In this document: in pieces, positions 1-31,853 of the stretch
Layout: each line of letters begins with the position of its first letter
How positions within the stretch are numbered: the first letter of the stretch is position 1
Assembly (NCBI GenBank): GCA_026418035.1
Contig: JAOACC010000053.1
Location: 1 to 37,374, forward strand
Direction of reading: 5' to 3'
DNA: 37,374 bases
From: a bacterium
GTDB taxonomy: Bacteria; DUMJ01
The notes under the pieces: generated by a model
The model's database searches: none
Seen by the model: the letters and a program-made list of their open reading frames with translations, nothing else
Told to the model about the DNA's origin: nothing
Position numbers and translations under genes: made by a program

Positions 1-914
1 GCAGGGTCTATGTCTATGTGAATCTTTTTAGCTTTAGAAGCAAACTTATCAACTCTACCAGTAGTCCTATCACTAAACCTACATCCTATAGCTATAAGTA
101 AGTCGCACTCCATAAGAGCATAATTCGCAGCGTAATTACCATGCATACCAGCTGATTTTAAGGATAATGGATGGTCTTGAGGAAAGCTTCCTATTCCCAT
201 AAAGGTCGTTGCTACAGGTATATTAGCCTTCGTAGCTAATCTAAATAGCTCTTCGCTTGCACCTGCGATTATAACTCCACCACCAGCCAATATACAAGGC
301 TTCTTCGCCTCGTTTATAAGCTTTGCTGCCTCTTTTATCTGCCTTATATGACCAGTTACAGACGGTTTATAGCCTCTTATATTAATCTCTATAGAGGAAT
401 AATCAAAATCGGTAGTAGCAAGCTGAACATCTCTGGGGATGTCTATAAGAACAGGACCAGGACGACCAGTTCTTGCTATATAAAATGCTTCCTTTATGAT
501 TCTAGCCAATTCATTGATATCTTTTACAAGATAATTATGCTTTGTTATTGGAGAAGTGATACCAGTTGTATCTGCCTCTTGGAAGGCATCTTTTCCTATC
601 AAACGAGTAACCACCTGGCCCGTAATAGCCACTATAGGAATTGAATCCATATAAGCATTAGCTATTCCCGTGGTAAGGTTAGTTGCCCCAGGGCCCGAGG
701 TGGCAAAACATACACCTACCTTTCCAGTAGCCCTAGCATATCCATCAGCCATATGGGCTGCACCTTGCTCGTGATGGGCAAGGATATGTCTTATACCAGA
801 GTCATAGAGAGCATCATAGACATCAATTATAGCTCCACCTGGAATTCCAAATATAACTTCTACACCCTCATGTTTTAAGGCTTCGATAACTATCTGTGCA
901 CCAGTCAATTTCAT
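1..914 (-). CDS. ilvB: Acetolactate synthase large subunit, N-terminal part (runs off window)
   Basis: This is the first ~304 codons of a ThDP-dependent acetolactate synthase; the rest lies beyond base 1. The enzyme condenses pyruvate with pyruvate or 2-oxobutyrate as the first common step of Val/Leu/Ile synthesis. The frame opens [19 protein letters not shown] and shows the family landmarks in order: the GIPGGAI loop, the catalytic Glu of ThDP activation in [16 protein letters not shown], and TSGPGATNL. It continues into the central domain with [12 protein letters not shown] and the FSDRTTGR motif. The ATG at 914-912 overlaps the ilvD stop as ATGA, which suggests translational coupling, so it should share the T-box-controlled transcript. 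Catalytic rather than anabolic-only isoforms cannot be told apart without the C-terminus, but the ilvD partner supports a biosynthetic role. Confidence 0.95.
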
Positions 915-2575
915 CTTCTATTTACCTCCATAACTGCTCCAAATGAAGCAGAAGATACTAGTTTCTGATATCTACCAAGATATCCTTTACGTCTATGACT
1001 TTCTGGAACTTTATATACTCTCCTAGAAAGCTCCTCTTTATCAACCAAAAGATTTACTTCTCTCTTATTAAGGTCTATTTCTATAAGGTCTCCATCTTGC
1101 ACGTAAGCAATAGGACCACCTTCCCAAGCCTCTGGAGACACATGTCCTATAGCCAGCCCTCTAGTAGCGCCAGAAAATCTACCATCAGTTATAAGGGCAA
1201 CATCCAAGTCTAACCCCATACCAACAAGGGCAGATGTAGGGGTAAGCATTTCTCTCATTCCGGGACCACCCTTGGGACCCTCATATCTAATTATAACCAC
1301 ATCACCTTTCTCTATCTTATTGCTAAATATAGCTTTTGTTGCCTCATCTTCGCTGTCAAAAACCTTAGCCCTTCCTATAAATCTGTACAAAGATTCTGCA
1401 ACTCCTGATTTCTTAACTACTGCACCATCTGGAGCTAAAGTCCCTCTAAGTATAGACAATCCACCAGTCTCTCTTATAGGATTATCTATAGGTTTTATTA
1501 CATTGTAGTCTTTAACCTCAGTATTATCTATAAGCTCACCCAACTTCTTACCACTAACAGTAAGAGTATCCCTATCTACAAGCTTCCTTTTACTAAGTTC
1601 CTTCAAAACAGCCATAACACCACCAGCTCTATGTAGATCTACAACATAATATGGACCTACAGGACTCAAATGACAAAGATAAGGAGTCTTATCTGCTATA
1701 CTATTTATTTCATCAAAATCCAGCTCAATGCCCAACTCATTAGCTATAGCGGTAAGATGCAAGATTGTATTAGTTGAACATCCTAATGCCATATCCAAAG
1801 TTATCCCATTTAAAAATGCTGATTTAGTAAGGATCATCTCAGGGATAATATTTCTCTCAACTAATTTCACTATAGCCCTTCCAGTAGCTTTAGCCAATCT
1901 TATCCTCCCAGCTTCTACTGCAGGAATAGTTCCATTTCCAGGAAGAGCTATCCCAATAGCCTCAGATAAACAATTCATAGAATTTGCTGTAAACATTCCA
2001 GCGCATGAACCACATCCAGGGCAGGCAGAATATTCTAATTCTCTAAGATATTCTATATCCTTTTTACCGCTAGCAACAGCCCCAACAGCCTCGAATATGG
2101 TAGACAAATCTATCCTTCTTCCATTATATTCTCCAGGTAACATTGGTCCACCGCTAACAAGTATGGATGGAACATTTACTCTGGCTAGTCCCATTATCAT
2201 ACCTGGAATAATCTTATCGCAATTTGGAATAACAACAAGACCATCAAACTTATAAGCTTCAGCGAGTGATTCTACACTATCAGCAATGAGTTCTCTAGAA
2301 GGAAGGGAAAAGCACATCCCACTATGATTCATAGCAATTCCATCACATATACCTATCGTTTCACACTCAAAAGGAACCCCGCCTGCTTCTCTTATACCAG
2401 CCTTTACTGCTTCTGCTATTCTTGCTAGATGCATATGACCAGGGATTATTTCCGAATAACTATTTATCACCCCTATAAAGGGCTTATTCAGTTCCTCATC
2501 ATCTATACCTAGAGCTTTCAAAAGTGACCTATGTGGAGCCCTTTCAATTCCTCTTTTAATTTCATCACTACGCAT
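911..2575 (-). CDS. ilvD: Dihydroxy-acid dehydratase
   Basis: A 554-residue IlvD/Edd family protein of normal length. It dehydrates 2,3-dihydroxy-isovalerate and 2,3-dihydroxy-3-methylvalerate to the 2-oxo acids in Val/Leu/Ile synthesis. Iron-sulfur cluster cysteines are visible in [10 protein letters not shown] and [18 protein letters not shown], followed by [10 protein letters not shown], and the C-terminal domain has [14 protein letters not shown] and [11 protein letters not shown]. The Edd paralogue (6-phosphogluconate dehydratase) is less likely because the gene is coupled to ilvB and sits behind a branched-chain T-box. The ATG at 2575 has an AAGGAG ribosome-binding site about 8 nt upstream, placed just after the T-box terminator. 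Confidence 0.97.
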
Positions 2576-2599
2576 ATCATCAACTCCTTTTCAGATTAT

Positions 2600-2787
2600 A
2601 AAAAAGCTTTCCTTCCACAGCAAAAATCTGCTAGGGACGGAAAGCTTTCCGCGGTACCACCCTACTTGGCTTTTAAACCCACTTTCTATTCTATAACGGG
2701 AATTCCCGGGATAAGCTACTACTATTTCACCTATCCAGCTCCGAGGCGAGTTCACCTTAAATGGCTACTACTCCTCTTCACAGCTTT
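2600..2787 (-). promoter_or_regulatory. T-box leader (Leu/CUC specifier, ultrashort Stem I) controlling ilvD-ilvB
   Basis: The diagnostic T-box sequence AGGGTGGTACCGCGG lies at 2663-2649 and its antiterminator partner GTCCCT ends at 2633. The UGGU bulge would pair with an ACCA tRNA end, matching the A73 discriminator of tRNA-Leu. The competing terminator pairs AAGCTTTCC (2647-2639) with GGAAAGCTT (2612-2604) and ends in a T run near 2605-2600. Upstream, GAGG (2776-2773) pairs with CCTC (2746-2743). The internal loop between them carries AGTAGTA on the 5' side and GAA-CUC on the 3' side, capped by GCC/GGT around a 6-nt loop. CUC (2750-2748) is therefore the likely Leu specifier. An outer AGCT/AGCT helix (2785-2782 with 2740-2737) closes Stem I, which is only ~49 nt. 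Stem II (GGATA/TATCC) and CGGG/CCCG elements follow. Confidence 0.93.
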
Positions 2788-2809
2788 TGCTATATGTAAT
2801 TGTTTAGAG

Positions 2810-2838
2810 ATAATATCAAAAGAAATTACGCAAGTCAA
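2810..2838 (-). promoter_or_regulatory. Sigma-A-type promoter of the ilvD-ilvB T-box transcript
   Basis: The -35 box TTGACT (2838-2833) and -10 box TATTAT (2815-2810) are separated by exactly 17 nt. The predicted start near 2803 is about 20 nt before the base of T-box Stem I. Confidence 0.75.
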
Positions 2839-2903
2839 GTAAAATGGTCAGAGATTTCTTCTTGATTATTATTGATTATTTGATAGAAGATTAATAGAAC
2901 ACA

Positions 2904-2936
2904 CTGAGGGGAAAGAGTATGCCTCTTTCCCCTCAG
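2904..2936 (-). terminator. Terminator after the solute-binding protein gene
   Basis: A perfect 14-bp inverted repeat, CTGAGGGGAAAGAG (2904-2917) and its complement (2923-2936), has a 5-nt loop. It lies 9 nt past the stop of the minus-strand gene. The trailing sequence on the minus strand (GTGTGTTCTATT) is only moderately T-rich, so termination may be imperfect. It also insulates the ilvD promoter from upstream transcription. Confidence 0.75.
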
Positions 2937-31045: not shown

Positions 31046-31510
31046 TTGAAAGAGGAAGAGAAAGTAGTAACGGTCAACAGAAAGGCTTATCATGATTACG
31101 ATATAGAGGAGACACTAGAAGCAGGGATAGTATTATCTGGAACTGAAGTAAAGAGTCTTAGAAGAGGAAGTTGTAATCTTAGGGATAGTTATATACAGAT
31201 AAAAGATGGAGAAGCTTGGATAATAAATATGCACATACCGCCTTATAAAGAAGGTGGTAGATACAATCTAGACCCGGATAGAACAAGAAAGCTTCTCCTT
31301 CATAAAGAAGAGATAGAGTACCTCGCAGGTAGAAGCCAACTGCGGGGATACTCTATAATCCCGTTAAGGGTATATTTTAAAAGAGGGAGAGCTAAACTAG
31401 AGATTGCTCTAGCTAAGGGTAGAAAACTAGTAGATAAAAAGAAATTACTTATAGAAAAAGAAAAGGTAAGAGAGTTAGAGAGAGCTTTAAAGGAATACAA
31501 GGGGGCGTAA
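31046..31510 (+). CDS. smpB: SsrA-binding protein
   Basis: A 154-residue SmpB, which carries tmRNA into stalled ribosomes. The OB-fold core has AYHDYDIEETLEAGIVLSGTEVKSLRRGSCNLRDSYIQI, AWIINMHIPPYKEG and RTRKLLLHKEEIEYL. The basic C-terminal tail (LALAKGRKLVDKKKLLIEKEK plus a final helix), which mimics mRNA downstream of the A site, is split only by normal variation (here IALAKGRKLVDKK). The start is TTG, 2 nt after the rpmE stop, with GGAGAG upstream. Its last codons GGG GCG TAA are also the first 10 nt of the tmRNA gene, an unusual overlap with its own RNA partner. Confidence 0.96.
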   Translation: MKEEEKVVTVNRKAYHDYDIEETLEAGIVLSGTEVKSLRRGSCNLRDSYIQIKDGEAWIINMHIPPYKEGGRYNLDPDRTRKLLLHKEEIEYLAGRSQLRGYSIIPLRVYFKRGRAKLEIALAKGRKLVDKKKLLIEKEKVRELERALKEYKGA

Positions 31511-31853
31511 GGATTCGACGGGGATGGAGAGGTCAAAAGGAGCAGGACGAGTCACCGCAGGCTCGTAAAAATGCGGTAAAAAAATAACTGCTGACAATCA
31601 GTTAGCATTAGCTGCCTAATTAGATAGGCAGAGGTCATTCCTGCCTTAGCCTGCGAGGTAGGAAATGGCCTGACCTTAGCAGGCTGACTCTTCCTCCGGT
31701 GCTCACAGGAGGAAGAGGAAATTAAAGGTGAGCTTACTTCTATAGCCCTGCCTCTGGGGTCCTATAGAAGGAAAAGTAAACAGGGGCTAATCCTGTAGGA
31801 GCCTTTTGGCGTCTCATTCTCGGACGCGGGTTCGATTCCCGCCGCCTCCACCA
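31501..31853 (+). ncRNA. ssrA: tmRNA (10Sa RNA), one-piece, trans-translation
   Basis: The 5' end GGGGGCG (31501-31507) pairs with CGCCTCC (31843-31849) as a 7-bp acceptor stem with one G-U, followed by A and an encoded CCA. The T-arm GCGGGTTCGATTCCCGC precedes it, and the 5' GGATTCGACGGGGA is the usual tmRNA start. The tag frame probably resumes at GGT (31575) and encodes GKKITADNQLALAA, ending TAA at 31617-31619; the ALAA end is the ClpXP-type degron and the GK start resembles Bacillus tags. The exact resume codon is an inference. Several G/C-rich hairpins after the tag (for example AGGCTGACTC and GGAGGAAGAGG segments) are the expected pseudoknots. It overlaps smpB by 10 nt. Confidence 0.97.

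What the first reader, a model, noticed from the sequence alone, without database searches (positions are those of the whole stretch)
2737..2787. Transcriptional T-box with an ultrashort Stem I
The T-box upstream of ilvD has a perfect antiterminator/terminator pair, but its Stem I is only ~49 nt. AGCT/AGCT and GAGG/CCTC helices flank an AGTAGTA / GAA-CUC specifier loop that is capped by three base pairs and a 6-nt loop. The distal AG-bulge and apical loop that stack on the tRNA elbow in classic T-boxes are missing. Ultrashort Stem I was described for translational ileS T-boxes of Actinobacteria; here it is joined to a transcription terminator and a Leu specifier. tRNA recognition would have to depend on the codon, Stem II and the acceptor end.
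Basis: partly seen in the sequence, partly recalled or inferred. Interest (0 to 1): 0.66.

Follow-up and report, generated by a model that had tools for sequence, protein, structure and literature searches.

The report
Leucine T-box lacking the elbow grip
A bacterial RNA switch that senses leucine starvation through uncharged transfer RNA appears to control transcription without the part normally thought essential for gripping the tRNA's elbow, making it a natural test of whether that part is needed.

Summary
Confirmed: the minus strand at 2790-2630 carries a genuine T-box leader (RF00230, 103.6 bits, gathering 93). It lies upstream of ilvD and has a strong, mutually exclusive terminator. Stem I is only 49 nt (2785-2737): base helix, K-turn, GAGG/CCUC helix, S-turn plus CUC (Leu) specifier loop, then 3 bp and a 6-nt loop. 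The AG bulge and distal loop (IDTM) that touch the tRNA elbow are absent. This is not an annotation cut-off: a consensus promoter puts the transcript start about 16-19 nt before Stem I, and promoter plus short Stem I are conserved in two other species of the genus. Related Leu T-boxes elsewhere share the proximal Stem I sequence but carry 53-67 nt where this one has 8. No other short Stem I turned up in a sampled, imperfect survey of about 1,160 genomes.

"Ultrashort" is the wrong label: published ultrashort (class III) T-boxes hold the specifier in the apical loop. This one has class IV architecture (side bulge, intermediate length), but transcriptional output and class I-like sequence. The likely mechanism, Stem I/Stem II anticodon pincer plus antiterminator capture of uncharged tRNA-Leu(GAG), is inferred. 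New variant of a known kind.

The parts
2810..2838 (-). sigma-70-type promoter TTGACT-17-(TG)-TATTAT; predicted start site about 2804-2801
   Evidence: consensus scan 10/12 with TG extension; conserved in G001 and G002; start site inferred
2737..2785 (-). short Stem I, 49 nt, no distal AG-bulge/apical (IDTM) module
   Evidence: RF00230 alignment with distal 51 positions skipped; anatomy; conserved in three species
2773..2776 (-). Stem I middle helix 5' arm GAGG (pairs with CCUC 2746-2743)
   Evidence: 4/4 pairs compensatory, 99.2% paired over 32 T-boxes
2741..2742 (-). 3' side of K-turn (GG; 5' side GUGAA at 2781-2777)
   Evidence: matches RF00230 conserved UGA / GGAG positions
2766..2772 (-). 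AGUAGUA, S-turn side of the specifier loop
   Evidence: RF00230 AGUA positions
2754..2765 (-). cap of Stem I: GCC-AUUUAA-GGU (3 bp, 6-nt loop)
   Evidence: sequence; invariant pairs in genus, loop varies A/G
2748..2750 (-). specifier codon CUC (Leu), preceded by GAA, followed by purine G
   Evidence: RF00230 alignment; cognate tRNA-Leu(GAG) found in genome
2709..2736 (-). Stem II, 8 bp with GAA/AGUA S-turn-like loop
   Evidence: RF00230 alignment; 8/8 pairs compensatory in 32 T-boxes
2688..2708 (-). Stem IIA/B: CGG-GAAUUC-CCG with possible pseudoknot AUUC(2703-2700)/GAAU(2691-2688)
   Evidence: IIA by RF00230 and covariation; IIB pairing is inference
2668..2679 (-). Stem III
   Evidence: U-G in own genome, C-G in G001 and G002; 4/4 pairs compensatory in 32 T-boxes
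2633..2663 (-). antiterminator with T-box bulge UGGU (2659-2656) complementary to tRNA ACCA end
   Evidence: tRNA-Leu(GAG) ends ...GGCACCA
2600..2646 (-). intrinsic terminator hairpin 2646-2605 and U-tract, overlaps antiterminator 3' arm
   Evidence: -22.1 kcal/mol, z -4.28
2573..2589 (-). Shine-Dalgarno AAGGAG and ilvD start, outside the terminator
   Evidence: sequence
911..2575 (-). ilvD (dihydroxy-acid dehydratase), first gene of ilvD-ilvB-ilvN-ilvC-leuA-leuC
   Evidence: ilvD plus start of ilvB in window; whole operon read in G001, present in the same order in G002; gene names assigned from sequence, not by a family search

Best explanation
It is a transcription-attenuating T-box riboswitch for leucine that controls the ilvD-ilvB-ilvN-ilvC-leuA-leuC operon. 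Uncharged tRNA-Leu(GAG) pairs its anticodon with the CUC specifier in Stem I, and Stem II (through its S-turn, folded back by the K-turn) clamps the codon-anticodon helix from the side. The tRNA 3' ACCA end pairs with the UGGU bulge and stabilises the antiterminator, so transcription runs into the operon. Charged tRNA cannot, and the terminator forms. The distal Stem I module that stacks on the tRNA elbow in class I T-boxes has been lost in this genus, leaving a natural counterpart of the laboratory delta-DTM construct. Sequence-supported: domain anatomy, promoter, terminator, specifier, cognate tRNA, conservation, and absence of the distal module. Inferred: tRNA binding, the pincer geometry, and that the switch works without an elbow contact.
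For: RF00230 above its gathering score. Two orthologous leaders with the same promoter and short Stem I; the 161-nt element is 98% identical across three species. Promoter places the transcript start ~16-19 nt before Stem I. Covariation for every helix over 32 T-boxes, 95% of cells paired against 41-53% for slid controls. The segment between cap and specifier is 8 nt here against 53-67 nt in 29 relatives that share the proximal layout. tRNA-Leu(GAG) with A73 and encoded CCA is in the genome. Downstream BCAA/leucine operon, as in long-Stem-I Leu T-boxes before leuA or ilvB elsewhere. Stem II pincer mechanism and the effect of removing the distal module come from PMC7583486, PMC10482949 and PMC5951919.
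Against: No binding or termination data. Transcriptional T-boxes are reported to depend on the elbow module (PMC7583486), and deleting it from glyQS gave short-lived complexes (PMC5951919). The cap helix shows no variation within the genus. Nearest-neighbour folding pairs the specifier with GAG.
Confidence: 0.85

Rival explanations
1. A decaying T-box: the distal module was lost and the leader now acts as a fixed or leaky attenuator that no longer responds to tRNA.
For: Loss of a module said to be needed in transcriptional T-boxes (PMC7583486); only one T-box in the genome.
Against: All other tRNA-contacting elements are intact, and the 161 nt are 98% identical in three species whose upstream DNA has diverged and whose IlvD proteins differ at ~8% of positions between G001 and G002.
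Confidence: 0.1
2. The short Stem I is an artefact: the real Stem I is longer and uses sequence upstream, or the assembly lost a piece.
For: The RF00230 alignment simply skips the distal part; some other leaders looked short in a covariance-model alignment and proved long.
Against: Three separate assemblies agree; nothing fits between AGUA and GAA; the promoter leaves under 20 nt upstream; an intrinsic-terminator-like hairpin (2936-2904) closes the upstream gene.
Confidence: 0.03
3. Regulation is translational, as in known short-Stem-I T-boxes.
For: Published class III/IV T-boxes mostly act on translation (PMC10482949).
Against: Strong hairpin followed by U6, with the ribosome-binding site about 10 nt beyond it and not paired in it.
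Confidence: 0.04
4. The switch needs an additional partner, for example a K-turn-binding protein or a tRNA contact by another part of the leader, in place of the elbow contact.
For: K-turn-binding proteins are suggested to help T-boxes (PMC7583486); the natural loss of the elbow module may need some compensation.
Against: No candidate extra element is visible: Stem II, IIA/B and Stem III are of minimal size.
Confidence: 0.15

Closest known systems
Class I transcriptional T-box (B. subtilis tyrS type), especially Leu-CUC T-boxes of leuA/ilv operons
   Same: Proximal Stem I nearly identical in sequence (GAAGAGGAGUAGUAG...GAACUCGCCU), K-turn, S-turn, Stem II, IIA/B, Stem III, antiterminator/terminator, BCAA target genes
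   Different: Distal half of Stem I (AG bulge and apical loop, the IDTM) is missing: 8 nt instead of 53-67
Class IV translational T-box (Actinomyces odontolyticus ileS)
   Same: Intermediate Stem I without IDTM, specifier in a side bulge between two helices, Stem II present
   Different: Leu not Ile, terminator not sequestrator; sequence points to class I ancestry
Class III (ultrashort) translational ileS T-box (Nocardia farcinica, Mycobacterium)
   Same: No elbow-binding module; Stem II S-turn expected to carry the stabilising contact
   Different: Specifier is not in the apical loop; output is transcriptional; Leu
Engineered delta-DTM glyQS T-box (PMC5951919)
   Same: Stem I truncated distally and capped by a short loop, transcriptional class
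   Different: Engineered from a Stem-II-less glycine T-box; ours is natural and keeps Stem II

Membership tests
T-box leader (RF00230) | covariance-model score over the curated gathering threshold | tested here: met
   103.6 against 93 bits
T-box leader (RF00230) | T-box bulge complementary to tRNA NCCA, with a matching tRNA in the genome | tested here: met
   UGGU 2659-2656; tRNA-Leu(GAG) with A73-CCA
T-box leader (RF00230) | amino-acid biosynthesis or aaRS gene downstream matching the specifier | tested here: met
   ilvD-ilvB in window, ilvD...leuA-leuC in G001
T-box leader (RF00230) | binds uncharged cognate tRNA and switches | not testable with these tools
   needs in vitro antitermination
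Class I T-box | long Stem I with distal IDTM (AG bulge and apical loop) | tested here: not met
   8 nt between cap and specifier, no AG bulge
Class I T-box | transcription terminator/antiterminator | tested here: met
   sequence-level only
Class III (ultrashort) T-box | specifier in a 5-6 nt apical loop of Stem I | tested here: not met
   specifier in a side bulge below a 3-bp cap
Class IV T-box | intermediate Stem I, no IDTM, specifier in side bulge between two helices | tested here: met
   covariation of the lower helix
Class IV T-box | translational output (described as 'mostly', so not strictly defining) | tested here: not met
   terminator plus U-tract
Class II T-box (glyQS) | no Stem II domain, glycine specifier | tested here: not met
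   Stem II and IIA present, CUC specifier

The most novel reading that the evidence does not exclude
A natural lineage of transcriptional T-boxes works without any tRNA-elbow contact. The Stem I/Stem II anticodon pincer plus antiterminator capture alone would recruit tRNA-Leu fast enough during transcription, contrary to the view that the elbow module is essential for transcriptional T-boxes.
Probability: 0.6. Interest if true: 0.62.

Novelty: new variant of a known kind. Interest (0 to 1): 0.47.

Why it matters
Reviews explain the missing elbow module of translational T-boxes by the lack of a time limit, and hold that transcriptional T-boxes need it to catch tRNA before polymerase reaches the terminator. 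A conserved transcriptional T-box without the module is a ready-made natural test of that kinetic argument. It would also be a compact leucine sensor and, on sequence grounds, apparently a separate loss of the module from the actinobacterial ileS forms.

Tried and rejected
Searched for other short Stem I T-boxes with RF00230 in 59, 40 and 386 genomes, the genus covariance model R1 in 398 genomes, and a spacing pattern in 50, 301, 299 and 7 genomes. In the candidates inspected, T-boxes that could be judged kept a long Stem I, or the short match came from a missing Stem II, from Stem II itself, or from an AGUA in the distal arm; a few were cut off by contig ends or not printed. A weak second T-box hit in the same genome, G000:C31:25-198 (E 0.7, 14 bits), did not reach the Rfam threshold and was not pursued. 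Searches of plasmids and viral contigs found no relative. Older key papers (Vitreschak 2008, Gutierrez-Preciado 2009, Sherwood 2015) are not held, so prior mention of transcriptional short forms there cannot be excluded.

Full report
What is there. The minus strand 2790-2630 matches the T-box family RF00230 at 103.6 bits (gathering 93; E 5e-22), and the match itself skips the 51 distal Stem I positions. It is the only convincing T-box in the 2.13-Mb genome. Read 5' to 3', the leader consists of: a consensus promoter (2838-2810); an unpaired lead of about 16-19 nt; a 49-nt Stem I (2785-2737); Stem II (2736-2709); Stem IIA/B (2708-2688); Stem III (2679-2668); the antiterminator with its UGGU bulge (2663-2633); and an overlapping terminator with U-tract (2646-2600). 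The Shine-Dalgarno sequence and ilvD start follow.

Stem I in detail. Base helix AGCU/AGCU, K-turn GUGAA/GG, helix GAGG/CCUC, S-turn strand AGUAGUA opposite GAA-CUC-G, then three pairs GCC/GGU closed by AUUUAA. There is no AG bulge and no second loop. CUC fits the leucine operon, and the genome holds tRNA-Leu(GAG) with discriminator A73 and encoded CCA, matching UGGU. The base 3' of the specifier is a purine, as in other T-boxes (PMC7583486).

Is the short form real? Three assemblies of the same genus agree: 98% identity over 161 nt, with the promoter also conserved and DNA further upstream diverged. The start site predicted from the promoter leaves no room for another arm, and an intrinsic-terminator-like hairpin ends the gene upstream. 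A 32-member alignment from R1 shows 8 nt between cap and specifier in the genus but 53-67 nt in the other 29, which share the proximal layout. The alignment is fitted to the model, and related sequences inflate the shuffle control, but every helix is supported by changes on both sides, and slid structures pair 41-53% of cells against 95%. The GAGG/CCUC helix has compensatory change in all four pairs. The cap pairs do not vary inside the genus. In relatives the same columns are the first pairs of the distal helix and covary, which supports their position but does not test the 3-bp cap.

Ancestry. Leu-CUC T-boxes with almost the same lower Stem I sit before leuA across much of the phylum of G014 (28 of 40 genomes carry a T-box; leuA downstream in nearly all of those), and before ilvB-ilvN-ilvC-leuA in G153. 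All of these match the full family length and the ones displayed have the long Stem I. The simplest history is loss of the distal half in the lineage of this genus, not kinship with the actinobacterial ileS forms. This is inference; no tree was built.

How rare. About 1,160 genomes were screened in total with three approaches. The genus scores 207-211 bits with R1 and nothing else passes 90. Inspection of unusually short matches showed long Stem I with AGNGA-type bulge, or matches lying in Stem II. The screens are incomplete: large sets scored only the best 5-7 candidates per genome, the match list was truncated, and the pattern fixes Stem II size. 'Not found in this sample' is the claim, not 'unique'.

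How it likely works. In class III structures Stem II clamps the codon-anticodon helix, and truncated Stem I alone binds tRNA barely (PMC7583486). Here Stem II keeps the GAA/AGUA S-turn signature and the K-turn that would fold it back. Elbow contact is held to speed tRNA capture in transcriptional T-boxes, and glyQS without the distal module forms only short-lived complexes (PMC5951919). This leader is a natural version of that deletion, though it retains Stem II, which glyQS lacks. Whether it still switches is the open experimental question.

Naming. Literature classes: I long with IDTM; II long without Stem II; III short with apical specifier; IV intermediate, side-bulge specifier, no IDTM; III and IV mostly translational (PMC10482949). 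This element has class IV architecture, transcriptional output and class I-like sequence. 'Ultrashort' should be dropped. TBDB mentions class-I-model hits with truncated Stem I (PMC7778990), so related cases may already lie unremarked in databases.

Noticed in passing
window 31501-31853 (+): Complete tmRNA gene, tag peptide ADNQLALAA.
   Followed up: no
L005, L112-L138 (phylum of G014): 28 of 40 genomes of this unnamed phylum carry exactly one T-box match; leuA lies directly downstream in nearly all, and those aligned have a long Stem I, mostly with a Leu CUC specifier.
   Followed up: partly
L139, L140, L143 (G147, G235, G344): T-boxes with full Stem I but Stem II and/or IIA/B strongly reduced or absent. 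In L139 the linker is only a few nt and the specifier reads UGG, suggesting Trp.
   Followed up: no
window 2904-2936 (-): Strong terminator-like hairpin between the upstream substrate-binding-protein gene and the T-box promoter.
   Followed up: no
window 2531-2842 (+): 103-aa ORF antisense over the T-box; probably spurious.
   Followed up: no
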